Positions 13,961 to 64,000 of a DNA stretch of 64,000 nt are shown piece by piece. Position numbers and translations under genes: made by a program. The stretch comes from Sphagnum magellanicum. Lineage: Eukaryota; Streptophyta; Sphagnopsida; Sphagnales; Sphagnaceae. The first letter of the stretch is position 1. The number at the start of each line of letters is the position of its first letter. Where the stretch lies: assembly GCA_021904315.1 (NCBI GenBank), contig CM038916.1, positions 434,001 to 498,000 of the forward strand. Direction: 5' to 3'. The notes beneath the pieces were generated by a model. That model was not told the origin of the DNA. It made no database searches and saw nothing but the letters and a program-made list of their open reading frames with translations.

Positions 13961-15354
13961 GTTTAAAGGCCATTTCATGCCATTTAAAATTATTTTAAAA
14001 GTATGAGTGCAACAAAGATTTACATGTAGTAATAATGGCTATTTAAAATCATTCAAAATTAGGTAAATACACATCTAACCTAAGCTAAATTAATAAGCAT
14101 AAGACATTTGAGCACATCATTGTTGTTGTTTTTTTTCTAATTTTTTTTAATTAATTAATTTTTTTCCAAGTGGTTCATTAATGTTTTATCAATACAAAAT
14201 TGGATATCCGATATAATGCTTTAAGCTAGGGTCAGCTTCCATATTGACAAAGCGAATAATTAATCATTTTTTTGAAAAATAAAATTATTATTTTTAATGA
14301 AATAATGTTTTTTCTGCATTATATATAAAAGTTTGCTATGAAATTATTGTCATGATAAGAAAGAAAATTATTCAGATCATAGTCTGCAATAATTATGATG
14401 GTTTTCAACACCCCCAACTTAATATTTTCACAAAAAAAAAGGTTTAAATATTAAAAGGATTATTTAATGACTAAATTGACCCTAATTGTTACACTATTTT
14501 TTTATAAAAAATTTTAATTTCAATTTTGCGATGTTGCTCAAGTGGAAATCATCTATAAATATGATTAGCCAAATCTGGTGATATTCAAAATATGAAAGTA
14601 AAAAAAAAATCATAAATGCCTTTTCATATTCTACGCAATAGTGACAAATTTTGGCATATTTTCAAATTTAAAATACTTTTTTTTGCAAATTATTGTCCAA
14701 AAAAAGAATTTGATAAATGTTAGCCTCTTTTCAAATATACATATATTTTAAATAAAATGACAAAAAATCGTCATAAAAAAATTACTTTTAAGCAAGGTAT
14801 AATAAGTTTTGATGTAAATTTGGGAATTAATTAATTGAAAAATCTAGAAATTAGGTACCATGGTCAATTTTTTAAAAAAAAATTCACCAAATTTTTGAAG
14901 TGGGTGGGTTGGGAAAGCATTAAACAAGTACACCAAGTTCAATGCATCTATAGTACAATGCCCAAAGGAAAAAAAATTAGATTTTTTAATATTATATTCG
15001 CACGATGATTAATATTGTAAGTATCTCTTTTACACAGTAGTTTCAAAAAAAATAATGATGTATTTGATATAATCCTCATTTTAACCCAAAGGTCCAAGGT
15101 TCAATCCTTTTCTCAATTATTTTTTTCAAAAAAAAAAAGGTGAAAAAATTCATAAAATATTTTAAAAAATTAATTACTTTTGAGAAATAATTTCCCTAGG
15201 CAAAAGAAAATTAAATGCTAGTTCCAAGCAAGTTTTCCATGAAGGAAAAAAAGTTCCTTCAGGGAAAACATAACTTCCTTGGGGAATGGCACCTTCCTTG
15301 GGAACAATGTATTTTCCCTTAGGGAAAGGCTTAAATTCCTTGGGGAAACATACG
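13961..15354. other. Very AT-rich intergenic DNA
   Basis: No gene was seen. It grades into the repeat family that begins near 15200, announced by recurrent TTCCTTGGGGAA-like motifs. Confidence 0.5.
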
Positions 15355-16700
15355 TTCTAAATCTTTTTGCAATTAGTCATCTCATTTTTATTTAAAAATA
15401 TTATTTACAACCTATCATTGGATAGGTTTTGAGAAAAGCTACAACTTTGTAGGCGAAAATATTTCAATCAAAATTTATATGCAAAAATTATGATCAAACA
15501 AAAATTCAAACACATTTTTTCCTCGAGGAAACTTAAACTCCTGCTCCCTAAGGAACATGATTGTTCCCCAAGGAAAAAAAGGTGTAAACCATTCTCTGGA
15601 GCAATTTAAACTCCTTCTCCTTGAAACCATGATTGTTTTTCAAGGAGAAGCCAATTTCCCTAGGGTACAATGAACTTTCCTTGGGAAAATGCCCCAAGGA
15701 ACATATGTTTTGAATTTTTATGTAATCATATTTCATTTTTGTTTTTATAGAGGTTTATGACTTATTGTTAGAAAGGTCTAAATGAGAACTACAACTTTGT
15801 AATTGAAACACATTAAGCAAAACCCAAATGCAAAAGTTATGATCAAACAAATTTTTAAACACATTTGTTCCTTGAATGACTAGTTGTTCATTGGAACAAT
15901 TTAAGTTCCTTTTCTTTGGGGATATGATTGTTCCTTAGGGAAAAAAAAGTTTAAGTTGTTCCCTTAGGCAATTTAAGTTCCTTCTCCTCAAGGACATCAT
16001 GATTGTTCTTAGGTGAAAAACCATCTTCCTAGAAGAAAGATGAACTTCACCCAAGGAAAGGTGCAAGTTCTTTGCATAAACATATGTTTTGAATCTTTTA
16101 ACAATCATAGTCATCTCATAATTGTTTTTATATAGTCTTGTGGCCTATCATTGGAAAGGTCTCGAAAAAAGGTACAACTTTGTAATTGAAAGCACTTTAA
16201 TCAGAACACATATGCAAAAATGATGTTCACACAAAGTTTCAAACACATTTGCTCCTCAAGGGAACATGGTTTAAGTTGCTCTCCAAGGGAATTACTCCTT
16301 GAAAGAACATGGTTGTTCCCTAACAAAATAATTATCTTCGAAACTTTGTGTGAACAATAATTTTTTCATGAGAGTTCTGATTGAAATGCTTTCAACTACA
16401 AAGTTGTACCTTTTTTCGAGACCTTTCCAATGATAGGTGGCAAGGTTATATAAAAACAACTATGAAATGAATGTGATTGCTAAAAGATTTAAAACATATG
16501 TTTCCTTAAAAAATTTGAACCTTTTTTCAAAGACAATTCATTGATCATCAAGGAAGTTAACTTTTCCTTGGGGAACAATCATGTCCCCAAGGAGACGGAA
16601 TTTAAAGTGTCCCAAGGAGCAACTTAAACTTTTTTCTTTCCATGGAACAACAATGTCTTCAGAAAGAAAGAACTATTTTTTCTTCAAGAACATGATTGTT
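15355..16700. repeat. ~350-bp tandem repeat family ending in a large inverted repeat
   Basis: Three direct units begin near 15355, 15705 and 16084. Each carries a TTTGAATC-like start, a block ending CTACAACTTTG or GTACAACTTTG (15439, 15789, 16172), and a segment like ATATGCAAAAATTATGATCA. A fourth unit lies inverted at about 16338-16505 (CAAAGTTGTAC at 16399-16409). The inverted relation appears to extend outward on both sides through the TTCCTTGGGGAACAATCATG-type motifs, giving arms of roughly 360 bp (about 15895-16262 against 16338-16700) around a ~75-bp loop. There is no coding capacity. It is either a satellite-like repeat or a foldback element. Confidence 0.75.
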
Positions 16701-17164: not shown

Positions 17165-19460
17165 TATTGGAATCTATTCTCTCTAAAAATGGCGAGTTTA
17201 GAGGAAAAACCTACCCCCCCCTCCCCACTCCCGTCTTCCTCCCCTGAATCTTTTTTTCTTCATTTGGATGGCGGTTTTGGGGTCGTCTTCTTCATCCTGC
17301 CAAAACCAGGACCCACTCTTGTCGAGCACTTCTTCGCGTTTGTCTTCTTCTGCTGCTGCCGCTGCTGCTGCTCGTCTTCCTTCCTTCCCTCCTTCCAGCT
17401 GCTACACGGATCGCTTACTTTTTTTGAGGTAATCTCCCTTGGTTCGCCAACTCTTGTGTTTGCGTCCCGACAACAGCTTTCAGCATCTTCCACTTTTTAA
17501 GAAATAAATTTTTTAAAAAAAAATCTTTGGGGGAAAAAGGAAGATCCATCTTCCACTTTTATCACCAAAAAAAGAAGAACAAAACAAAACCAAAACGAAG
17601 ACAAAATTAAAAAACAAAGCTAAATAGGAAAGGTTTCCAATCTTTTGTTTTGTGTTTTCTGTTTCGGTTATTGTCACCCTGCGGGGCATTTGCGATTGTG
17701 CTAGTAGAGGAGGAGGAGGAGGAAGAGGAGGGACCGTCTTTCTTGTGCGATTCATCCGGGATTGATTGCCTGAGTTTTCGCCATTGTCTTTGTGTTTACT
17801 TGTTTTGTTTTTGTCCCTTGTTCTTGTTCTTCTCCTTCTGCTTCCTCCTCTTGTTCTTGTTCTTCTTGCTCTCGTTTTCGTTGGAGTATGAAGGACAGTG
17901 CTGCTGCTCCTGGATTTTTTTTGGGAATTTTTGGCTGTTTTTGTGAGGATTTATTTCGGTGGATAAGTAGTTGTCGAGGGGAGGCGAGATTTGCTGCCTG
18001 CAAGCGGTGATGCTTGATTGTTGTGTTTTTGTGGAGCGGCGGAAAATGAGTGGAGTGGAGAAGAATAACAACTACAAGAGCGGCGTTGGCTTCTTCTTCC
18101 TCTTCTGATGTTGCCGGATGTTGTACCAAAGACGGCTCTCTAAGAACTGTTACGGTGCAGTTGTTGCATCCAGTTTCTGTGCATTTTTGTTTGCAATCAA
18201 GTGCGGAAATCTTGTAGAACGTGGTTGCGTTGCGATTTTCTGCTTTCGGGAAAGGATTTTGTCCCCCGTTTGCTGCTGCATCTTGCAAGTATACCGATTC
18301 TGCTGCTGCTGCATTTCGAGGTTCCAGGCATAGATCGCCCGTGCTCTTCTCTCAAGCTGCTTGCTTAGACTGGACAATTCTTAGTCCCCGATCTGTTTTG
18401 TCCGGATTCAGTAAGCGCCTTAGAAGAAAAGAACAGAAGAAGAACAGAGTGTTTGTGTTCAAGAGATCCAATCTGGAGCTTCAGAGACTCGCAGATCGGT
18501 CTAGAGGAGAGAGAAGGTGCACATTTGGATGGTCTGGTCCATAGCATAGCACCGCCAGAAGAAGCGACAACCAACGATTGATTGTCAAGTGCTGTCGGAC
18601 CGACCTGCAAGCTTGAATGTACAGACTTCCGTCTGGTTTTTTCACAGATCGCAGATTCTAGAGCATTTGAGGAGCGTCATCCTCTGCTGCAAGGCGGCGG
18701 ACTGCGGAACCTTTTGGACATGCTGCTGATGCGCACGGATCCAAACTCCTTCTGCACGTTTCTGGACTCCTCTAGAACGTCAGTAAGTACGTATAGCGTG
18801 ATCTGCAGCTTTTCTGACATGTATCTGAAGGGCCGCTTGAGTGCCACGCGACAGACGATGTATCGTGGGACGATGATGCGGTGGTAGACGTACCATATGT
18901 GCAGAGCCTGCGAGGCCGTTGTTTTCTGGCGCACCTTTCCAACAGACTGAACAAGTGCTGCCGCTCTTTCGGAGGCAGCAGCGTCGTCTACAGACTTCTC
19001 AGGCAAGTAAAGTGAAGCTGGTGGATCCAAGCTTGAGACACTGGTGATGATGAGCAGCCTCGGAAGTAGTAGATGTGGAGCTTGCTGACTTGTTGAATGG
19101 CAACTGCAGAATACGTTTCTGAAGGATTGGGAGTGGAAGAAGGGATGATGATGATGGAGTTGGTGGTCTTTGGTGGCCAATCAATCCAGAGCCTCTCCTG
19201 TTTTCTTTCTAGCACTTTCAATGATGCTGCTGCTGCAGTGGGGAGCAGCTCTGCTGCGGCAAGCAATCCACAAGTTGTTGCTGGTTGTCTGACTGATTTT
19301 TAGAAAATCCAAAAAAGTTTGAAAGCATTGAAAGTTTTGTTGAGGAAGTCTAGTTTGCTTGAGAATCAGTGACTACTGATGATGAGGAAACCATGAGAAG
19401 AAGAGGCAACCCATTAATGCATGTCAGCAGCAAGCCAGTGTGAAACAACAATCTTGGAAA
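17165..19460 (+). other. Putative long 5' leader of the SnRK1 gene
   Basis: This ~2.3-kb GC-richer stretch precedes the kinase start. It holds CTG/CTT-rich runs (17350-17372, 17820-17870, 18260-18312), many upstream ATGs and a strong donor-like CA|GTAAGT at 18783; a later TTTTAG near 19298 could be an acceptor. Open frames of 70-178 residues occur on both strands; the largest minus-strand ones (17752-18288 and 18677-19180) lack a recognisable domain. The simplest reading is a spliced leader. A separate unrecognised gene here cannot be excluded. Confidence 0.4.
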
Positions 19461-25296
<5,836 letters not shown>

Positions 25297-27882: not shown

Positions 27883-29427
27883 TCATTCATTGAGTTGCTG
27901 CTCATCAAATTCCAGATATGCAAGGTTGGAGCACATGGTGCTGCACCATGCATCAAACGCCTCAGAAAGATTTGGCCAATTTTGTGTTGGCCAGCTTTTG
28001 AGATATGGCACTTGCTCAAGAGGAGGGAGGGTCTTGAGGACTCCATTCAGGGCTTTGTCAACATTCTTCTTGGTGGCCTCGTAGATACAGAAATCAATTG
28101 CTACCAGCTCTGGCAGCCATGCTTCAACCAGAGCAAGGCGCACAGAATTCTCCAACCAGATTTCTCCCTTTGCCACTATTTCCAGATAGCGCACAAGCAC
28201 ATTGCAGGTGTCTTGGACAAAGTTGAGACCTGAGTATGCATACTCTGTGCTCACAAGAGGCCAGATACCAAACAGCATTTGAGAGAAGGATCTGTCAACA
28301 AAGATCGTCCTTGCTGCTAACTCAGCAATCCCAAAATCAACAAGGGAGTTCAACAGCCAGAACAAACCTTTGCCTGCAACAGAGAATTCTTCATCTTTAT
28401 ACAAGTGGGGGATCCTGCAATGTTGCCTAAAATCGTCAACAGCCCGCTGTAGAGCATCGTACATAACAGCTTTCACGACATTAGCAACAGATTTAGACAC
28501 TGCTGGTCCCCGCATTGACACCTTCAGTAACCTCTCAAATGCAGCTCTGTTTTCCAGCACTTTAGTCTCAATCATCTGATCCTGCTGATTCAACTGCATG
28601 CTCTTCAAAAGCAAAGTCTCAAGTACCTTCTTCAATGCATCCAAGGAGCTGTCTCTTGCCAGGTTCCCAAAAGTACCAAGCCGGGCAGCCAGATCAGGCG
28701 AAGGAGCAATCTGGAAAGTGGAGACTGCACATCGAATGGCATCCAGATCCACTGCACTCCATGGCATCAATGCCAGGTATCGCATGCAGGTATCTACACA
28801 GTCCTGGAAAACAAGCTGTGCTGCAACAGGCAACACTTCTATAGCATGTGCCACATTCTCAAAGGAGGCAGGAGAGACTTGCTGGGCGTACAGAAGCTGC
28901 ATACATCGCGTGTAAGCCCGCGGATTGCTGCGGGCCTCCAAGGTCAGGTCAAGAGGAGGAAGGTCATTCTTGGACCAACGCTCCGCCAAGCATGCATCGA
29001 AGTATTGGCAACGTCGTAGATATGCGGAATGGACATGTAGGGTAGCGACAGCAGCATCTACCTGATCCGCCGTCAGCTGCTGCTGCTGCTTCTTCGATGA
29101 TTGCCCTTGCTGCTCCAGGGATTCGCCTCTACTACGCAGATCTGAGGGGCCGCATTGTAGTTTTCTGGATTTTTTGCAAGGAGGAGGTCCTTTCTCTGAG
29201 GAGGAGTCGCCCTCCTCCTGTTGTCTCTGGAACTGGTCCGGATTTCCTCCTCCTCCTCCTGCCTGCTGCTGCAATGGTACCAACCGCAGAGTCACGTCGC
29301 TAGTTTCGTCTTCCTTAAGCCACACCTCTGTCGGCATTCCTGAGCCATCTGCTTCCAGGCGCAAGGGTGGAGCCAAACGGAGCGTGATGCTGCTCTCGTC
29401 GTCTTTCGGCCACACCTCCATCAGCAT
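27883..29427 (-). CDS. BTB/POZ domain-containing protein, intronless coding region
   Basis: A single 514-residue frame from the ATG at 29427. The family is a plant BTB/POZ group of the At1g63850 / At3g05675 / At2g13690 type, as I recognise it; such proteins are usually presumed CUL3-E3 substrate adaptors, but that role is not proven for this group. Seen: two N-terminal copies of an EVWxKxDExSxxTLRLxP motif (residues 4-20 and 34-51), the second (SDVTLRLVP) like the start of a BTB fold. A low-complexity Gly/Gln/Ser linker (52-118) with a basic KKSRK (85-89) follows. Then come the BTB-like LHVHSAYLRRCQYFDACLAE (130-149) and a long helical C-terminal region typical of the group. The frame stays open upstream to 29484 without a better ATG; ATG CTG ATG offers a second start two codons later. 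It points toward the SnRK1 gene, tail to tail. Confidence 0.85.
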   Translation of the reverse strand: MLMEVWPKDDESSITLRLAPPLRLEADGSGMPTEVWLKEDETSDVTLRLVPLQQQAGGGGGNPDQFQRQQEEGDSSSEKGPPPCKKSRKLQCGPSDLRSRGESLEQQGQSSKKQQQQLTADQVDAAVATLHVHSAYLRRCQYFDACLAERWSKNDLPPLDLTLEARSNPRAYTRCMQLLYAQQVSPASFENVAHAIEVLPVAAQLVFQDCVDTCMRYLALMPWSAVDLDAIRCAVSTFQIAPSPDLAARLGTFGNLARDSSLDALKKVLETLLLKSMQLNQQDQMIETKVLENRAAFERLLKVSMRGPAVSKSVANVVKAVMYDALQRAVDDFRQHCRIPHLYKDEEFSVAGKGLFWLLNSLVDFGIAELAARTIFVDRSFSQMLFGIWPLVSTEYAYSGLNFVQDTCNVLVRYLEIVAKGEIWLENSVRLALVEAWLPELVAIDFCIYEATKKNVDKALNGVLKTLPPLEQVPYLKSWPTQNWPNLSEAFDAWCSTMCSNLAYLEFDEQQLNE

Positions 29428-30060
29428 CGCTACACTGCACCTCAGGACTACTAAGGAAGGAATAAACACCTGAAGACTGTGCACCTAAGACCTTAAGGTA
29501 GAGAACAGTTACAAACAGAGATAGCAAACGAAACGAGGACAGCGCAAGCACTCGGCAACATGTCCATTAGCATTCCTACCATGATATTCTTCTCTATGGA
29601 GAAACCCGACCGGCTTGCAAAGCAAGAGGAACAGAGCAAAATTTGACAGCAACGCCCCACAAAGGTCAACTGCAATGAGGAGAAACAAAAGAAGCAGCCT
29701 CAAAATGCAACAAACACTGCAACAAACAAAAAAAAGAGATGAAGAACCTGGGGGCCGGCGGGGGAGGTTCTTCTACGACAGAAGACACAAAAAGTGGCAC
29801 ATCCAGAAAGCAATTTTCCACAGCAAAAGGATCTATAAAAATTGGAAAAAAATTCAAAAATTCCCTGCAAACGCTTCTCCTGTATTTCAAGCTCTGGGGG
29901 AACTTGGATGTAGAGAAAAACAGCAAAACGAAGCAAGCAGACCACCCACTGTGTCGTTTTCTCTCTCTCTCTCTCTCTCTCTTTCTCACCCTCTCTCTCG
30001 CGCAGCAACTGTGCGCTTCCTTCCTCCCGCGGACCTTCCTGAGAGAGACGAAGGCTCAAC
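29428..30060 (-). promoter_or_regulatory. 5' leader and promoter region of the BTB gene, with CT microsatellite
   Basis: About 530 bp upstream of the start lies (CT)n at 29961-29982 (GA on the coding strand) followed by another short CT run, typical of plant leaders. Long plus-strand frames across this interval have biased composition and no domain; they are judged spurious. Confidence 0.45.
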
Positions 30061-31411: not shown

Positions 31412-31547
31412 AATGAGAGGTGTGCTGTCAGATCCCCTTCAGGTTGTTGGGTTTTGATGCGGTTTGCCTACTCCTTAGAGCATTCCTTGGTATGGAACAC
31501 TGACGTGCCATCAAGATGCAAGCAGGACTGAAAGTGCAGATATCTAA

Positions 31548-34178
31548 TTTGAAAGAGAAGCAGCCTGCTAGTCTTCATGTGAGGGTAGGTATCAGGATAG
31601 CCAACCTTTCTTTTACAGAAGTTGTGGAAGCAGCCAGCTGGACAGTTGAGAGAGTCGGAAGATACTCTTCACACAAGGGAACATTGGTAAATAGAGATCA
31701 TGGCAGGAGGAGTAAACAGTCCTGTGGTAGCTGCGAAGCTAACTAGTTCCAAATCAGAATCTGGACTGTTTGGGAAATGCTTTATCCAAGCCTCACAGGG
31801 TACTGTCACAGAACTGGCAAATGTTATCAAAACTACCATTCCTAAAATCCAAAACAATATTGTGGAAAGAGTCTAGGAATACCTTGTGAGGAAGTAAAGA
31901 TGAACAAATCACCTGGAATTGTATAAGAGTGCCTTCACAATTGCAGCCTTAAGCATAAATCTGAGCAAAATCCATTCCACCAGACGTCCAAGACTGGAGG
32001 AGCTAGAGCACTTGCAACAAGTGCTTGCAGGTAGCAATCATATTTCGCATAGTGAGAACACTCAAGACAGTTGACATCAGAGCATCATATGGATTGAAAG
32101 ATGGAGTTTTTTCAGGCTTCTTCTGCACGCAAAGGGAACAATCAAAACAACCATTCTCTTTAGCTCCAGGAAAATTGGGAAACTTCATTGAGGTGACTTC
32201 TCTCCACTGCAAGCATAACCATGAAACATTCAAGCTTTGTCTATCCAAAGATTGGAATACGTTCACACACAATTCTTAAAAGGAACAACAGTAGAAATGC
32301 ATTGATGTTTGTCCTTCTTCTGAAAAATAGAAACAATGCATTCCAAATGCTTCATTACAATCTCAGCTTTGAACAACAGAAACTATTTATTCTAAATGCT
32401 TCATTATAATGACAAGCCACACACTGTCTCCTCCCCACACTCTGGAGAACACTTAAAGGGTTCATCAAACCTCCAAATGAGGAACAACTCTCATGGGCAA
32501 ATATGTGAAATTGAGAAACTTATCAGAATACATGGATTGAATATATTCCTTCAGAGATAGTCACAGGATCGATCAAAGCCTGTTGGGACAGAGGTGCATC
32601 AAAAGCTGGGGCCAATTCTGACCATCTTCAATTTGCCACTGCACAAGGTGATGGAATTCAATCTTTTTCTTGCCTCTGTACTGAATTCTCTATTGCTTGC
32701 TACATTCAGAGCAATTCTTTCCAAGTGCAACAACAGATCATCTAGATAAATTGTTATTGACAACTTGATAACTCCATACAACAGGTGATGGAGCACAACT
32801 ACTCGTGTGCATTAGAATGGTCATTTCTGCACCATGGGTGGAATATGTGTGAGCCTTGCACATGTGTTTCCACTCTAATGTCTTTGCAAAGCAGCTGAAG
32901 GTGAGGTCTTCATAAACACAAGTTCCAATACCAACTATCCTGAAATATACAACAGACAAAGAGAGTCAGGAGTCAACTAATACAAATCCTTCTTATCAAT
33001 CTTTCGGGGATTGTTCAGAAATGTGAAAAAAAGTTTGAGCTCAATGTTTGACAGTGGTATCTCCTGACAGTGTCAGAAAGTGAGCTTTTGCCTTCTTTAC
33101 AGTGTCCCCAGACTAGGCATTGATTAGCTGCTTCTACTGCTGGGGTCTGTCCTTCCTTAAGACAGGATTTTGTCATGTTCATCCAGATAGCACAACAAAC
33201 TTTATTTGGACTGTTACATTGCATTTGCCTTTGACAATGGTGCTTATCTTTCTACTGGTTGTAATCTCACAAGTCATCTTACCTTATGAAGACATTGAAG
33301 AGGTAAGACATGCGGTTGCTATTGTACACAACTTGGCAATTCTTTGCAAAGCTTCTTAAGGTTACAATTCTTGGTTCTCAAAAGCAGAATTCCATTGCTT
33401 GTTTTGCTGAGTTTTTTCTGTCTGAGATAATTGGAATGTCTTTTGGGAGGGTATCCACAGATGAAGAGGAGCTAGCATGCAATCATCAACCCTGCCATAA
33501 ACATTACATTTCAATTAGGTTCTAGAGGTCAAGGAGTTGCCTCATAGAAATGACCCCTACATGTTGTGCGACATCAAAATCTCAAATCCATTTACCATAA
33601 GCATTGCACTGGTCTCCAATTTTTGGATTAACAGTTCCTTATGATGGTATTATGTAACAATATAGTAGGATGATGATTTTGGTTGGAAGTGAATTAGGGA
33701 AGTAGAAAAGCAACAATTAAGTGGACTATCAAGACCTATCCACAAAAGATGTATGCAGAATGCCATTCCAAAGTGTTCTACATGGTGAATATTATCTGAA
33801 CAAGAAAAGAAACACTTACCAATCTCCTCTAGGAAGAGCAATAGCAGGTTTAAGCATACTGAAATCAAGAGTCAAAAAGTGGAAAGAATGGAATTAGGAA
33901 CGAATAACAGTGATGACCAAAGATTTGGGCAGCCAAGCATTATGTTGTTCAATGTAAGGGATTTCCACTCCCATGCCCATATGCCATGTCTTCAAAAACA
34001 TGCACTTTCAAATCAAGCCAGCTCTGCAAATTGGGAAGGAACAAAACTGATCAGAGAAGAGTGTTGGACATCTGGATGAGTGAAACCATACATGAGCTCC
34101 TAAAAAACTGTAAATCAATAGAGGATAAGTCTAAACTGTCTATGAAATCTATGTCAATTGAAAGAAGATCTTTACCTT
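31548..34178. other. 3' part of the duplicated block; no certain gene
   Basis: Several frames are shared by both copies on the minus strand: 32003-32272 (CFDCSLCVQKKPEKTP), 32738-32959 (WKHMCKAHTYSTHGAEMT) and 33015-33224 (EGQTPAVEAANQCLVWGHCK). A short exon-like piece at about 33819-33863 ends at a GTAAGT donor. They could be 3' UTR, alternative exons or remnants of another gene. None is recognised. Divergence between copies here is near the background level apart from small clusters. Confidence 0.4.
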
Positions 34179-34946
34179 CTAAATGAAATTATGAGGAAAG
34201 GCCTTTTTGAAATCTTCGAACCGCTCAATGACCCCACACTGGTCTGGAAGATGAGTCCAGAAGTCAGGAAAGAGCTTGATGGCATGTGCAGAGTGAGCAA
34301 CAGCAAGCTCAAGAGCCTCAATATTTGCAAAGTGTGCAGTTGAGTTTCTTTGATTAATGCAACGGCAAGAAAGCTCCCGATACTCTTGCACTGACATGCC
34401 CATGACCTTTGAACCTACCTGAATGGCAAATTCAAGCAGTTAAAATGGCAAACAACATCTTGAAAATTCATTGAAAACAACTTTAAACACTTATATGCTT
34501 CACTTATGTCCTTGAAAGTACTGGTACAAAAACTAGGAAGTAGTAATGTTGTAGTGTCTTAATGCTTATCAGATACTCACCACCATAGGTGCAACCAAAT
34601 CGTCCCGGAAGAATTGCTTTCCATCACTGCCCTCCTCTCCTCTTAGGTTTACACTCCATTTCAGGATTTCTGCTGCACAAAGTATTAAGTCATTCCTGCT
34701 CCAATAATGTCCGAGCACTTTGAACTCCTCGAGGTGTGCTTTCACCTCAGCAATCATTGCATATAGTTGCTTCATTGTTGAAGACCAGGGGGATACTGAT
34801 GGAGGCGTCAAAGGAGGGAAGTCCTCAAGACCAAGCTCTGCAAAAAAGACACATAGCTTTAGATTAACATACAAGCATAAAACACACAATTCAACAACCA
34901 TACACACATAAAAGTATTAATACAATCTAGAAAATCAACAACAAAG
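31548..34946 (+). repeat. Segmental duplication, copy A (direct, partner 59294-63585)
   Basis: About 3.4 kb matches the partner copy in the same order and orientation, with only a few percent mismatch in most non-coding parts. The left edge is at TTTGAAAGAGAAG and the right edge at CAACAAAG. The match is broken by a non-homologous block (33533-33809 here). The copy includes exons 2 and 3 of the minus-strand gene below. Confidence 0.95.
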
Positions 34947-35135
34947 TATAAGAAGATTTGCACCTGGAGGATTCTCCTGCTTGGAAGAGTTCTCTGTCAT
35001 AGCCTCCCCAGCAAGAGCAGGGGCAGGAACCAAGGATCCAGGGAAAGCTGCTTCTGGCAAAGGCTCTGCCCTAGTGTTCACCTCCCGTTTCCGAGGCTTC
35101 TTCCCTTTCTTTCCCATGATAAAGCTTGGATGCAT
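34179..35135 (-). CDS. Unknown three-exon gene, copy A, 222 aa, fast-evolving
   Basis: Exon 1 is 35135-34964, exon 2 34837-34581 and exon 3 34418-34179 (stop TAG). Intron 1 is phase 1 and intron 2 phase 0, both with GT..AG borders; total 669 bp. The start is ATG at 35135 or the in-frame ATG at 35117, which gives the Lys-rich MGKKGKKPRKREV N-terminus, a possible nuclear signal. No known domain is recognised. Exon 2 contains KQLYAMIAEVKAHLEEF and CAAEILKWSVNLRGEE; exon 3 contains VQEYRELSCRC, NIEALELAVAHSAHAI and LPDQCGVIERF, mostly helical-looking. Evidence that it is a gene: intact frames, clean splice sites, and conservation of both exon lengths in copy B. The exons differ far more between copies than the introns do. 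Function unknown. Confidence 0.6.
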
Positions 35136-40439: not shown

Positions 40440-41195
40440 CACATGGTTCCCCATGTGATTCCACAATTAATCAAAAGGAAACAAATCCACATGGTCCTTC
40501 ATGTGATTTCACAATTAATTAGAAGGAAACAAAATCACATGGTCCCCCATGTGATTTCACAATTAATCAGAAGGAAACATAATCACATTATCCCCATGTG
40601 ATTCCACATGTGATTTCACAATTAATCACAAGGAAACATAATCACATGGTGCACCATGTGATTTCACAATTAATCACAAGGAAACATAATCACATGGTGC
40701 ACCATGTGATTTCACAATTAATCACAAGGAAACATAATCAGACAGTGCACCACGTGATTTCATAATTAATCACAAGGAAACATAATCAGACGGTGCACCA
40801 TGTGATTTCACAATTAATCACAAGGAAACATAATCACATGGTGCACCATGTGATTTCACAATTAATCACAAGGAAACATAATCAGACGGTGCACCATGTG
40901 ATTTCACAATTAATCACAAGGAAACATAATCACATGGTGCACCATGTGATTTCACAATTAATCACAAGGAAACATAATCAGATAGTGCACCACGTGATTT
41001 CATAATTAATCACAAGGAAACATAATCAAACGGTGCACCATGTGATTTCACAATTAATCACAAGGAAACATAATCAGACAGTGCACCATGTGATTTCACA
41101 ATTAATCACAAGGAAACATAATCAGACGATGCACCATGTGATTTCATAATTAATCACAAGGAAACATAATCACATGGTGCACATGATTTTCACAT
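40440..41195 (+). repeat. 48-bp satellite array, about 15.5 units, with a perfect palindrome in each canonical unit
   Basis: Units start at 40440, 40488, 40536, 40584 (59 bp), then every 48 bp from 40643 to 41171. The canonical unit starts with the 18-bp perfect palindrome CACATGGTGCACCATGTG and continues ATTTCACAATTAATCACAAG then GAAACATAAT. Variants replace the left palindrome half (CAGACGG, CAGACAG, CAGATAG). A distinctive variant with CACCACGTGATTTCATAATT recurs at 40739 and 40979, 240 bp (five units) apart, suggesting a higher-order duplication. Because 48 is divisible by three, a spurious 16-residue-repeat reading frame runs through it. Confidence 0.95.
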
Positions 41196-41219
41196 TAATA
41201 TGTGAAAATCAATGCACCA
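41175..41219. repeat. Hairpin closing the 48-bp array
   Basis: TGATTTTCACAT (41184-41195) pairs perfectly with 41200-41211 around a TAAT loop. The pairing extends outward through TGGTGCA against TGCACCA with one extra base. It lies exactly where the last satellite unit breaks off. Confidence 0.85.
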
Positions 41220-42049
41220 TGACCAAATTATGGAATCCAACCACTCAACTTACCCCTTTAAAAAATTACCTAAATAATTGTGTAATTACATCAAGTTACA
41301 CATCAAATTACAAGCCCCTTTATATGCAAGCAGGTTATAAGGGGCCCAAGCCTAATTGCACCTCTTTTCCCCCTAATAGCCTTTAGAATATTGTACTATT
41401 ATAATCATATCTATTATAAACTATCCATAAAGGTTTGAATAAGGAGACCATTGACCCCTTTACAAATGTGTGGACAGTCCAAGTATTTGGGAAAAAATGT
41501 GAGAGTTTTTGTTTTGTGTATCGAGGTGAGTGACAATGCAAAAAAGGTGAATATGTTAAAAAATGTGTGGACGATCCACATTTAGTGGACTATCCAGCTA
41601 TATATTTGGATGAGAAAATGGAATTTTTTTTTTAAAAAAAATTTGTGTCTTGAAGCGAATGAGGGCACAAGGTCTTGAATATGTTTAAAATTTTGTGGAT
41701 AATCCACATTTTTAAAATTGTCCAACTATTTTTTTCAAGAATGGGAAGGTTGGGTTTTTTTTCTTTTTGTCTTGAGGGTTAGTGGCGTGCAAAAGGAGGG
41801 AAGTGTGTTAAATTTTTAAAAATTTAGGATTTTAAATTGATGGGTTTGAGTTGAGGTTTTTATTTATTTACTTCTTTTGAAGTTGAGTAGATGATAGGGC
41901 TTACATGCTTTATTTTGGAGCCTTCTAAATTAATGTAAGAGGGGTTTGGGGTGGGTCTTTTTTTCTTCTTATTTTCAAGATGGATGATTGATGAAGCTTA
42001 TTCTTTTGAAGGATTTTGGGTTTAGGGTGGGTTTGGATTGTAGGACACT
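41220..42049. other. Intergenic DNA after the satellite
   Basis: No gene was seen. Diverged phrases around GTGTGGACAGTCCA, GTGTGGACGATCCACA and GTGGATAATCCACA (41468, 41564, 41693) recur about every 100-130 bp, an old tandem repeat. Confidence 0.45.
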
Positions 42050-42830
42050 TTTTTTTTTCCACCTCATAACTTTTAAGCTGATCTGTTCTTTTTTTTTCTT
42101 AAGACTTTCACAAGTCTTCACTGTGGAATGATATAGTTTAGAGGTTTTTTTATTTTTCTTCTTTTTTATAACCCAAGTGGGGTTCCAATGTGCTACCTTT
42201 GCTTGTTCATTTTTCTTTTCCTTCTCACAACTCTTGGTCTGGGATGAAGTTTAGGATTTTATTTTTTCTCTCTCCTCATAACTATTATGATGATATTTTA
42301 TTTTTCTTAAGACCTTCACAAGTCTTCATTGTGGAATGACATAGTTTAGGATTTTTTTATTTCTCTTTTTTTTCACAACTCAAGTGGGGTTCCAATGGGC
42401 TACCCTTACTTGTTCATTTTTTCCCCCCTTCTCACAACTCTTGGCCTAGGATAAAGAATAGGATTCTTTTTTGTTTTCTTCTCCTCATAACTATTAAGGT
42501 GGTATGTTCTTTTTTCTTAGGACTTTCACAAGTCTTCACTGGGGAATGAAATAGTTTAAGATCCTTTTCATTTCTCTTCTTTTTCAGAACCTAAGTGGGG
42601 TTCCCATGGGCTACTTGTTCTTCTTTTTTTTCCTCACAACTCTTGGCCCAGGATAAAATCTAGGATTTTTCCTTTTCCTCATAACTATCAAGGTGGTATT
42701 TTATTTTTCCTAGAGACCATCACAAGTCTTCACTATGGAATGACATAGTTTAAGATCTCTTTTTATTTCTCTCTTTTTTCACAACCCAAGGGAGGTTCCA
42801 ATGGGATGCTTTCACTTGGTCACTAAAACT
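42050..42830. repeat. Tandem repeat, ~195-210 bp unit, four copies
   Basis: The anchor TCACAAGTCTTCA is at 42108, 42316, 42526 and 42720. Each unit also has GGAATGACATAGTTTA-like, AAGTGGGGTTCCAATGGGCT-like and CTCACAACTCTTGG-like blocks in the same order, separated by T-rich spacers of variable length. Confidence 0.85.
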
Positions 42831-58916: not shown

Positions 58917-59293
58917 GTAAGCCTTATTATGTTGTTCCTCTCTGTGTGTCTGTCAACTGCCTACTTCTCATGGTTTGTTTGCTGAAAAAATTGATTCTCT
59001 GAAGTACACATTCCATGTAAAGAGAAAATGCTCTAAAGTGAAGTCGAGTCTCAGGTCAAGTACTCTCTTCTGGTAGAGCCTTTTCTTTGTGAATGATCTT
59101 ATTCACAAATGAATAGATCAAAAAACAGCTTAATGATCTTCACCACCAATGACTGCTTCTTATTGGTTCTCTCACTGCCGTTTTCCATTTCTGAAGCTTA
59201 ATCAGCAGGTCGACATACTGTTGACTTTTGACTTGGAGATTGAAGTTGTTGGTAGTTCTCCTGTTTCTGTTGGGGGGTTCCCTTACCAACATA
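58917..59293. other. Unassigned DNA between the PRP40C-like fragment and copy B
   Basis: The composition is genic but no exon was recognised. This stretch has no counterpart left of copy A. Confidence 0.4.
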
Positions 59294-59348
59294 TTTCAAA
59301 GAGAAGCAGCCTGCTAGTCTTCATGTGAGGATAGATATCAGGATAGCC

Positions 59349-60110
59349 TGTGACCGGACAATGGGTGGCCACTACAATGTGAATACTGCTGTTTGTGTTG
59401 AAAGATCCGATCTTGGTTATTAACTGATTTGTGCTGATTCTTGTTGCATGGCGGCTGCTCCAACTTCCATGCATGGTTGTGTGATGGCGCACAATGATGG
59501 GCCGAAATGGAGCTTCCTTGATGTGGGGAATGGCCGACGGCGCGTACTGGATGAGACTTGATGACGCTTTGAGCGCGAGGAGGGGTTCTTCCGGAAGGCC
59601 TGGAGGTGGTTGAGAGGAAGAGCTGGCTAGATAGATTGGAGCTGGGGAGAGGATAGGTAAGGTGTAGTGGAGGAGCTAGAGAGATCGCCTGCTGTTGATT
59701 TTCTTCCGCTGCGTTAGCAACTAGGGGATGACTAGCTCCCACATTTTTGGTACGAGTCAGGGTTCGAAGCAAAGCTCGGTGAGGTTTGGGAGGCATATAG
59801 ACGGACGGTTCGAGTGATCTGTGTTGGACTCTAGCATTCACTGAGTAGTAGTTAGATCACTGATGAACATGATGGAAAGAGGAAGCTTGTGCTGTTGAGG
59901 ATTTTGTGCAGTCTGAACTGTGAGTCGGATCGAGATAGGTTCAAGCAGATTCTTCTATTCCAGCAATTGATTTTTCGTTTGGTTTCGGACTAGTGCATGT
60001 TGCTGTGTGTTTCTTTGGTATGTGAGTGTCCGTGTTGAATCTGTCCGGAGTAAGCACGTCCTCGGGGACCTAGTGATGTTAGCTTCACGTCCCTCTCTTT
60101 TTTGGTTACA
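59349..60110. mobile_element. 762-bp insertion in copy B, solo-LTR-like
   Basis: Copy A reads straight through GGATAGCCAACC. Copy B has GGATAGCC, 762 bp, then AGCCAACC. The inserted piece begins TGTGACC and ends GGTTACA, so it has TG..CA ends with short inverted termini, and AGCC is duplicated (59345-59348 and 60111-60114). This fits a solo LTR or another LTR-type derivative. It contains no recognised protein; a 167-residue minus-strand frame (59338-59841) crosses its left border and is probably fortuitous. Confidence 0.75.
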
Positions 60111-62817
60111 AGCCAACCATTCTTTTACAGAACTCGTGGAAGCAGCCAGCTGGACAGTTGCGAGAGTTGGAAGATACTCCTCACACAAGCGAATATCGGT
60201 CAATAGAGATCATTGCAGGAGGAGTAAAAGTCCCGAGATAGCTGCGAAGCTAACTAGTTCCAAATCAGAATCTGGACTGTTTGGGAAATGCTTTATCCAA
60301 GCCTCACAGGGTACTGTCATAGAACTGGCAAATGTTATCAAAACTATCATTCCTAAAATCCAAAACAATATTCTGGAAAAAGTCTAGGAATACCTTGTGA
60401 GGAATTAAAGATGAACAAATCACCTGGAATTGTATAAGAATGCCTTCACAATTGCAGCCTTAAGCATAAATCTGAGCAAAATCCATTCCACCAGACATCC
60501 AAGACTGGAGGAGCTAGAGCACTTGCAACAAGTGCTTGCAGGTAGCAATCATATTTCGCATAGTGAGAACACTCAAGACAGTTGACCTCAGAGCATGATA
60601 CGGATTGAAATATGGAGTTTTTTCAGGTTTCTTCTGCACACAAAGGGAACAATCAAAACAACCATTCTCTTTAGCACCAGGAAAATTGGGAAACTTCATT
60701 GAGGTGACATCTCTCCACCGCAAGCATAACCATGAAACATTCAAGCTTTGTCTATCCAAAGATTGGAATATGTTCACACACAATTCTTAAAAGGAACAAT
60801 AGTAAAAATGCATTGATGTTTGTCCTTCATCTGAAAAATAGAAATAATGCATTCCAAATGCTTGCTTCATTACAATCTCAGCTTTGAACAACAGAAACTA
60901 TTTATTCTAAATGCTTCATTAGGGTCTCAGGAATGACAAGTCACACACTGTCTCCTCCCCACACTCTGCAGAACACTTAAAGGGTTCACCACACCTCCAA
61001 ATGAGTAACAACTCTCATGGGCAAACATGTGAAATTGAGAAACTTATCAGAATACATGGATTGAATATATTCCTTCAGAGATTGTGACAGGATCGATCAA
61101 AGCCTGTTGGGACGGAGGTGCATGAAAAGCTGGGACCAATTCTGATCATCTTCAATTTGCCACTGCATGAGGTGATGGAATTCAATCGTTTTCTTGCCTC
61201 TGTACTGAATTCTCTATTGCATGCTACATTCAGAGCAATTCTTTCCAAGTGCAACAACAGATCATCTAGATAAATTGTTATTGACAACTTGATAACTCCA
61301 TACAACAGGTGATGGAGCACAGCTACTCATGTGCATTAGAGTGGTCATTTCTGCACCATGGGTGGAGTATGTGTGAGCCTTGCACATGTGTTTCCACTCT
61401 AATGTTTTTGCAAAGCAGCTGAAGGTGAGTTCTTCATAAACACAAGTTCCCATACCAACTATCCCAAAATATACAACAGACAAAGAGAGTCAGGAGTCAA
61501 CTAATACAAATCCTTCTTATCAATCTTTCGGGGATTGTTCAGAAATGTGAAAAAAAGTTTGAGCTCAATCTTTCACTGTGGTATCTCCTGACAGTGTCAG
61601 AAAGTGGGCTTTTGCCTTCTTTACAATGTCCCCAGACTAGGCATTGATTAGCTGCTTCTACTGCTGGGGTCTGTCCTTCCTTAAGATAGGATTCTGTTGT
61701 GTTCATCCAGAGAGCACAACAAACTTTATTTGGACTGTTACATTGCATTTGCCTTTGCCTTTGGTGCTTATCTTTCTTCCGTTTCTAATCTCACAAGTCA
61801 TCTTACCTTATGAAGACATTGAAGAGGTAAGACATGCGGTTGCTGTTGTACACAACTTGGCAATTCTTTGCAAAGCTTCTTAAGGTTACAATTCTTGGTT
61901 CTCAAAAGCAGAATTCCATTGCTTGTTTTGCTGAGTTGTTTCTCTCTGAGATAATCAGAATGTCTTTTAGGAGGGTATCCACAGATGAAGAGGAGCTAGC
62001 ATCCAATCATCAACCCTGCCATAAACATTACATTGTGATTAGATTCTACAGGTCAACAGTTATAGATAGGTGCATGTGCTACCTAGTATTATTAAAATTT
62101 TGGGAAAAAAATTCATTAAGTCTTAGTAATTGTTCCACTACAAGTTACAACTAGCCCAAAACCAATTATTAAGTTAGTAATTTTATTTTATTTTTGTAAA
62201 AGATTAACGGCATGATTTTATTGGGAAAAAAAATCCTCACAATCAATGTTGTTCATCATTTATTAAATAACTCCACTTGTTATTAACAAATTGATCATCA
62301 AGGCTTCATATAATACTCTACAAAGTTAAATCTATGAGGTTGAAAATTGGCAAATGATGCCCTAAAAAGAAAAATTTTAGTTTAAAACAAATATAAACAT
62401 CCAAATTTTATTTGGAAGAATTTGCTAAGGTGTAAACATTTTCCCTAAACACTTACCAATCTCCTCTAGGAAGAGCAATAGCAGGTTTAAGCATACTGAA
62501 ATCAAGAGTCAAAAAGTGGAAAGAATGGAATTAGGAACGAATAACAGTGATGACAAAAGATTTGGGCAGCCAAGCATTATGTTGTTCAATGTAAAGGGAT
62601 TTCCACTGTTCCCACACCCATATGCCATGTCTTCAAAAACATGCACTTTCAAATCAAGCCAGCTCTGCAAAATGGGAAGGAAGAAAACTAATTAGAGAAT
62701 AGTGTTGGACATCTAGATGAGTGAAACCATACATGAGCTCCTAAAAAACTGTAAATCAATAGAGGATAAGTATAAACCATCTATGAAATCTATTTCAAAT
62801 GAAAGAAGATTTACCTT

Positions 62818-63476
62818 CTAAATGAAATTACAATGAAGGGCGTTTTTTAAATCTTTGAACCGCTCAATGACCACACACTGGTCTGGAAGATCAGTCTGGA
62901 ATTCAGGAAAGCGCTTGATGGCATGTGCACAGTGAGCAACATCACGCTCAAGAGCCTCAATATTTGTAAAGTGTACAGTTGCGTTTCTCTCCAAAATGCA
63001 ACGGCGAGAAAGTTCCCGATACTCTTGCACTGGCATGTCCATGGCCTTTGAACCTCTCTGAATGGCAAATTCAAACAGTTTGAACATCCTGAAAACATCT
63101 TGAAAATTCATTGAAAACAACATTAAACACTTATATCCTTCACTTATGTCGTGAAAGTACTGGTACAAAAACTTGGAAGTAGTAATGTTGTAGTGTCTTA
63201 CTGCTTATCAGATACTCACCGTCACGGGCTCTGTCAAGTCGGGCCGGAACAATTGCCTTCCATCACCACGCTCCTCTCCTCTTAAGTTTACGCTCCATTT
63301 GAAAATTTCCGCTGCACAAACTATTAACAGATGTTTGCTCGAATAACATCCAAGCTCTTTGAACTCCTCAAGGTGTGCTTTCTCTTCGGCATACATTGCA
63401 TATAGTTGCTTCTCTCTTGGAGACCAGGGGGATACTGATGGATCCATCAAAGGAGGGGAGTCCTTAAGACCAAGCT
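62818..63476 (-). pseudogene. Unknown gene, copy B: exons 2 and 3 intact, exon 1 missing
   Basis: Exon 2 is 63476-63220 (257 bp) and exon 3 63057-62818 (240 bp, stop TAG). Lengths, splice sites and phases are identical to copy A. Homology to A stops at 63585, inside intron 1, so no counterpart of exon 1 is present before the window ends. Residues differ strongly from copy A (for example KQLYAMYAEEKAHLEEFKEL; RRCILERNATVHFTNIEALE), yet no stop or frameshift has appeared. It may use a different first exon beyond the window, or be a recently beheaded copy. Confidence 0.55.
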
Positions 63477-63585
63477 CTGCAAAAAAGACACATAGCTTTA
63501 GATTAACGTACAAACATAAAACACACAATTCAACAACCATACACACATAAAAGTATTAATACAATCTAGAAAATCAACAACAAAG

Positions 63586-64000
63586 CTTGATGAAGTTGCA
63601 GAGAAATCTCCACAACAACAATTATAGGTAACACGACAATGAGTGCAGTCATAACCTCATGAGAGTTGCTCACAAAGTGACAGACCATCACCTTCATCAC
63701 GAACGGCAGTGACAAGCTGCCATGACTACCCACTGAGTTCATCAGCTCCCAACAGTGGGTGTAGATAAGCATATAATAATGTTCCCAAAAACTTGGGCAA
63801 ACCATTATACATAATCTGCGTCCTGAGTTTCTGTTGCCTTTCCAGAAGCAATGGGAAGACTCAGACGTGATGTTGGCTAGCACTCAAGAGACATCGCTAA
63901 TCAAAAAGTCAACAGTATCCTCATTCAACCTGCAGCAAGCTTCTGAAGGAAAGAGCTTTTATTTCATTTTAGCATGTCCCTGTATATGCAAGCATCTATG
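63586..64000. other. Sequence beyond copy B, unassigned
   Basis: A 105-residue minus-strand frame (63566-63883) has no recognised domain. Short pieces near 63738-63765 and 63820-63860 weakly resemble 27289-27320 and 27345-27382, downstream of the BTB gene. Confidence 0.35.

What the first reader, a model, noticed from the sequence alone, without database searches (positions are those of the whole stretch)
34179..34837. Exon-restricted hyperdivergence between duplicated copies of an unknown gene
Copies A (34179-34837) and B (62818-63476) share exons 2 and 3 with identical lengths, frames and splice sites. Exon 3 (79 residues) shows about 24 amino-acid replacements but only about one synonymous codon change. 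Exon 2 (85 residues) shows about 26 replacements and about 10 synonymous changes. The adjoining 105 bp of intron 1 has about 2 differences and the 3' flank about 4 percent. Intron 2 is higher (about 8 percent), half of it in one cluster beside the acceptor. Replacement changes far exceed neutral divergence, which is the signature of diversifying selection seen in arms-race gene families with conserved introns and hypervariable exons. The protein is not recognised (Lys-rich N-terminus, helical body). Partial exon replacement by gene conversion from a third paralogue is the main alternative, especially for exon 2.
Basis: partly seen in the sequence, partly recalled or inferred. Interest (0 to 1): 0.88.

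Follow-up and report, generated by a model that had tools for sequence, protein, structure and literature searches.

The report
Duplicated plant gene with hyperdivergent exons
Two copies of an unknown, apparently plant gene differ about three to four times more in their coding exons than in the DNA around them, but only one of the two shared exons shows a clear mark of selection for protein change; the other looks partly replaced by sequence from an older relative.

Summary
On the minus strand, copies A (exons 34837-34581, 34418-34179) and B (63476-63220, 63057-62818) share exon lengths, phases and splice sites, without indels or stops. Exon 2 differs at 50/257 sites, exon 3 at 31/240, against 90/1933 and 20/367 in flanks. 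The best-fitting high block is 34582-34826, almost exactly exon 2; around exon 3 it is less sharp (34131-34453).

The selection reading holds for half of it. Exon 3: dN .174, dS .041, ω 4.3 (ML 6.1, p .0055). Exon 2: dN .19 but dS .35, ω .56; its silent changes also exceed the flanks (15/56 v 110/2300, p 8e-8), which amino-acid selection does not give. Both exons: ω .99 (ML 1.37, p .28).

Best reading: a fast-evolving gene whose exon 2, mainly codons 30-86, carries sequence from a more distant paralogue or allele, with diversifying selection on exon 3 and perhaps the start of exon 2. No donor was found: none in the window, and plant paralogues elsewhere could not be searched. No known domain. 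It works like MHC or venom genes; it is not shown to be either.

The parts
34964..35117 (-). Copy A exon 1: ATG, Lys-rich start MGKKGKKPRKRE, phase-1 donor; no homologue beside copy B in the window
   Evidence: codon preference favours this frame
34838..34963 (-). Copy A intron 1; only 34838-34946 is shared with copy B (2/109 differences)
34581..34837 (-). Copy A exon 2 (257 nt); 50 differences from B, spread evenly over codon positions
34419..34580 (-). Copy A intron 2; 14/161 differences, 9 of them in the last 37 nt before the acceptor
34179..34418 (-). Copy A exon 3 with TAG stop; 24 replacement and 1 silent codon difference from B
33810..34178 (-). 3' flank of copy A shared with B (20/367 differences)
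31599..33532 (-). Downstream shared block of copy A, treated as non-coding (90/1933 differences) and used as neutral yardstick
63220..63476 (-). Copy B exon 2
63058..63219 (-). Copy B intron 2
62818..63057 (-). Copy B exon 3 with TAG stop
63477..63585 (-). Copy B part of intron 1; the duplication ends at 63585, so exon 1 of A is not part of it
60111..62056 (-). Downstream shared block of copy B

Best explanation
A protein-coding gene, of a plant by recall of its neighbours, and apparently a fast-evolving member of an unrecognised family, was duplicated as a roughly 3.4 kb segment, from inside intron 1 to the 3' flank, about 28.6 kb away. Flanks and introns have since diverged by about 5%. The exons hold older or extra variation. 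Exon 2, chiefly codons 30-86, carries sequence whose silent divergence is about seven times that of the flanks, most simply a tract acquired in one copy from a more distant paralogue or allele by ectopic gene conversion. Exon 3, and perhaps the first third of exon 2, shows replacement changes several times above neutral with silent changes at the neutral level, the mark of diversifying selection. Shown: the pattern, the open frames, the rates. Inferred: the conversion, its donor, and selection as the cause in exon 3. The product would be an intracellular, basic-tailed, helical protein of unknown target (inferred from its start and from low-confidence models).
For: Exon 3 omega 4.26 (NG86) and 6.1 (ML, p .0055). 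Exon 3 replacement 29/187 against flanks 110/2300, p 1.6e-7, with silent 2/50, p 1; against introns alone (16/270) p .0012. Exon 2 silent 15/56 (NG86 count 15.5, rounded down) against flanks p 8e-8, against introns 2e-5. Exon 2's silent rate differs from exon 3's, p .0013. The high block in exon 2 ends at the splice donor within 1 nt. Frames are open in both copies with no indel: chance about .06 for no stop and .011 for no indel if indels follow substitutions. Codon preference favours the coding frame in all five exon pieces tested.
Against: No third paralogue was seen, so the donor is hypothetical: none in the window, none confirmed in viral or prokaryote contigs (two short patterns each), and no plant data could be searched. 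Both exons together give omega not different from 1. The split of exon 2 at codon 29/30 was chosen after seeing the data. The depletion of third-position changes in exon 3 alone is marginal (6 against 10.3 expected, P .056). Copy B has no visible exon 1, so it may be a dead fragment. The block around exon 3 spills into non-coding sequence. Charge-changing replacements are not in excess of neutral simulation (20 of 50; P .13 starting from A.39 from B). If indels follow length rather than substitutions, their absence is unremarkable (P .26).
Confidence: 0.5

Rival explanations
1. Diversifying selection alone since the duplication, on both exons; silent changes in exon 2 came along by multi-nucleotide mutation or hitch-hiking.
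For: Exon 3 omega 4-6; the first 29 codons of exon 2 have 8 replacements and no silent change; several silent changes in exon 2 sit next to replaced codons.
Against: Exon 2 silent divergence .35 is about seven times the flanks (p 8e-8); exon 2 omega .56-.84; overall omega about 1.
Confidence: 0.17
2. The copies are old and the non-coding parts were homogenised by ectopic gene conversion, while exons were shielded because their differences were kept by selection (balanced or paralogue-specific function).
For: Flanks and introns lie near 5% while exon 2 has dS .35; sharp edge at the exon 2 donor.
Against: Exon 3 dS .04 equals the flanks; conversion would have to stop at both edges of exon 2 again and again.
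Confidence: 0.15
3. Relaxed constraint or pseudogene decay of one copy (B lacks exon 1), with no selection for change.
For: Overall omega .99-1.37 is what decay gives; exon 1 is absent beside B in the window.
Against: Decay cannot make exons diverge about 3-4 times more than introns and flanks; no stop or frameshift in 165 codons with 81 changes.
Confidence: 0.1
4. Exon-targeted replacement from a spliced RNA or cDNA of a relative, which would end at splice junctions.
For: The exon 2 block coincides with the exon to within 1 nt at the donor and 11 nt at the acceptor side, and all codon positions are raised equally.
Against: The exon 3 block overshoots the exon on both sides; intron 2 is kept in both copies; no donor was found.
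Confidence: 0.07

Closest known systems
Snake venom multigene families (three-finger toxins, phospholipase A2): conserved introns, fast exons
   Same: Introns of three-finger toxin paralogues highly alike while exon segments differ, with the cause of the exchange unresolved (PMC2474615, passages; PMC2711939, abstract and one section); KA/KS above 1 in venom copies (PMC6062510, passages).
   Different: Those are toxins of large families (secretion and Cys frameworks recalled); here two copies seen, no Cys framework, a Lys-rich start rather than a signal peptide, and only one of two exons with omega above 1.
Conotoxin superfamilies
   Same: Introns conserved; both dN and dS rise in the diversified exon (PMC3862624, abstract and one section), as in exon 2 here.
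   Different: Peptide toxins with a conserved signal exon; no sequence relation tested or suggested.
MHC genes with exon-wise gene conversion
   Same: Different exons of one gene with different histories through conversion of short tracts (PMC12431779, passages).
   Different: No MHC domain match; here paralogues, not alleles; no tract donor shown. The two MHC papers whose passages I saw did not analyse introns: that DRB introns are more alike than exon 2, and that replacement changes are raised there, is recalled.

Membership tests
Gene under diversifying selection | dN significantly above dS in the coding sequence | tested here: inconclusive
   exon 3 yes (omega 6.1, p .0055); exon 2 no (.84, p .63); both 1.37, p .28
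Gene under diversifying selection | dN above the neutral rate of introns and flanks | tested here: met
   29/187 and 34/202 against 110/2300, p 1.6e-7 and 2.5e-9; against introns 16/270, p .0012 and .0002
Gene under diversifying selection | Silent changes at the neutral rate | tested here: inconclusive
   exon 3 yes (2/50); exon 2 no (15/56, p 8e-8)
Gene conversion from a third paralogue | A donor sharing a tract with one copy | tested here: inconclusive
   no third copy in the window; whole genome and plant proteins could not be searched (ten genome-search runs unanswered; not sent)
Known protein family (Pfam, PDB) | Significant profile or sequence match | tested here: not met
   Pfam: A best E .011 (16.3 bits, cut-off 24), B none up to E 1; PDB for A only, best E .95
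Venom-like accelerated gene family | Secreted, Cys-rich product in a multigene family | tested here: inconclusive
   with exon 1 the product starts MGKKGKKPRKRE, not signal-like; 4 (A) and 6 (B) Cys in 165 residues; two copies in the window, family size elsewhere unknown; an alternative hydrophobic start in intron 1 is not excluded
Pseudogene pair | Stops, frameshifts, exon divergence equal to flanks | tested here: not met
   the missing exon 1 of B is the open point

The most novel reading that the evidence does not exclude
Coding exons of a plant nuclear gene are diversified by an exon-targeted route, such as conversion templated by spliced RNA or cDNA of relatives, that stops at splice junctions and leaves introns behind.
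Probability: 0.06. Interest if true: 0.8.

Novelty: new member of a known kind. Interest (0 to 1): 0.4.

Why it matters
Genes whose exons outrun their introns mark conflicts (host and parasite, mating, selfish elements) and are well described in animals. A plant example encoding a non-secreted, unrecognised helical protein would point to an unknown conflict. The case also shows that comparing exon replacements with intron divergence alone overstates selection when an exon has been replaced.

Tried and rejected
Wrong strand or frame: other frames of exons 2 and 3 carry stops and score lower on codon preference (trained on the neighbouring 533-codon frame, which itself has no Pfam match). Targeted mutation of one base type: the exon change spectrum resembles the flanks, with 45% (exon 3) and 48% (exon 2) of differences involving A against 54%. 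Radical charge changes: not in excess. Folds: exon 2 and exon 3 of copy B, each aligned with A, gave helices with pLDDT 58 and 56, so no fold search was made. Downstream block as further coding exons: the acceptor before one open stretch is not kept in B, so the block was treated as non-coding; this was by eye. Mobile-element capture of copy B: a 15-nt exact inverted match near its edges but no target-site duplication seen by eye. Organism: the SnRK1-like reading of the kinase gene (one exon matches Pfam kinase), the BTB-like reading of the 533-codon frame, and the guess of a bryophyte are recalled. Among the papers listed by searches (14 of 14; 12 of 88; 9 of 9; 2 of 2; 6 of 6), none describes this gene pair by its title or abstract start; searches found no paper. 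This does not establish absence from print.

Full report
Structure. The gene lies on the minus strand. Copy A has exon 1 at 35117-34964 (ATG, ending in phase 1), exon 2 at 34837-34581 and exon 3 at 34418-34179 with a TAG stop. Copy B has exon 2 at 63476-63220 and exon 3 at 63057-62818. Acceptors and donors are kept. The copies belong to a duplicated segment: A 31599-33532 pairs with B 60111-62056, and A 33810-34946 with B 62447-63585; a further 56 nt pair at A 31547-31602 and B 59293-59348. The upper edge lies inside intron 1, so exon 1 of A has no partner beside B. The window ends 415 nt further on, so a first exon of B could lie outside.

Divergence. Differences per compared site: downstream block 90/1933, 3' flank 20/367, intron 1 part 2/109, intron 2 14/161, exon 2 50/257, exon 3 31/240. 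A model with separate exon rates beats a uniform rate (2dlnL 38.2). A free scan finds 34582-34826 as the high block around exon 2. Around exon 3 the best block is 34131-34453, which goes beyond the exon on both sides: 5/46 in the 3' edge (p .066 against the downstream block) and 9/37 in the cluster before the acceptor; the rest of intron 2, 5/124, equals the flanks. Sliding the exon 3 interval 40-70 nt upstream improves the fit by up to 1.95 lnL. A two-state HMM did not recover the exons as single blocks but as 37 short segments; the longest dense one, 34722-34579 with 35/144, ends at the exon 2 donor, and one dense spot (33977-33956, 12 of 26 columns) lies in the 3' flank where the alignment has a gap.

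Codons. NG86 gives exon 2 dS .347, dN .194 (ω .56); exon 3 dS .041, dN .174 (ω 4.26); both dS .186, dN .184 (ω .99). A two-sequence codon model gives exon 2 ω .84 (p .63 against 1), exon 3 6.1 (p .0055), both 1.37 (p .28). Exon 2 codons 1-29 have no silent change (p .008), and codons 30-86 give .51 (p .09); this split was made after looking. By simulation the single silent codon in exon 3 has P .013; its third-position count, 6 against 10.3 expected, has P .056. Exon 2 silent sites (15/56) exceed the flanks (p 8e-8) and exon 3 silent sites (p .0013). Selection on amino acids does not raise silent divergence, so exon 2 needs another history for at least part of its length.

Coding status. No stop or indel occurs in 165 codons with 81 changes. 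Neutral change alone would avoid stops with probability about .06. With indels in proportion to substitutions it would avoid them with probability .011; by length alone the figure is .26, so that test is weak on its own. Codon preference taken from the neighbouring 533-codon frame is highest in the proposed frame for all five exon pieces; that training frame is itself only presumed to be a gene.

Identity. No Pfam family reaches its cut-off, no PDB relative of A was found, and no encoded relative was confirmed in viral or prokaryote contigs. The protein database was off and the genome search did not answer in ten calls. Models of single exons are helical but of low confidence.

Reading. Exon 3 behaves like exons under diversifying selection. 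Exon 2 behaves like a partly replaced exon. Exon-wise mixtures of this kind are described for MHC genes (PMC12431779, passages) and for venom and cone-snail genes with alike introns and unlike exon segments (PMC2474615, passages; PMC2711939 and PMC3862624, abstract and one section each). I therefore rate it a new member of a known kind, in an unrecognised and apparently plant protein, with the donor and the selective agent unknown.

Noticed in passing
34838-34916 and 63477-63555, minus strand: The end of intron 1 is open and in frame with exon 2 in both copies, with identical translation despite two DNA differences. An internal Met would give a hydrophobic, signal-peptide-like start (MVVELCVLCLYVNLKLCVFFA). 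Either an alternative start that would serve B, or a T-rich intron.
   Followed up: partly
59215-59229 and 63904-63918: A 15-nt exact inverted match flanks copy B (1 of 1000 single-base shuffles of the two flanks reached it); no target-site duplication seen by eye.
   Followed up: partly
59349-60110; 62057-62446; 33533-33809: About 760 nt are present in B and absent from A; a stretch between the two shared blocks is unrelated in the two copies.
   Followed up: partly
40440-41199, 42041-42822, 15293-16674: Two arrays of overlapping direct self-matches (tandem-like) and a region of inverted self-matches.
   Followed up: no
19460-25100 (+) and 27883-29484 (-): A protein-kinase gene (Pfam kinase exon at 19920-20426; SnRK1-like and its extent by recall) and a 533-codon frame that looks BTB-like by recall, without a Pfam match.
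   Followed up: no
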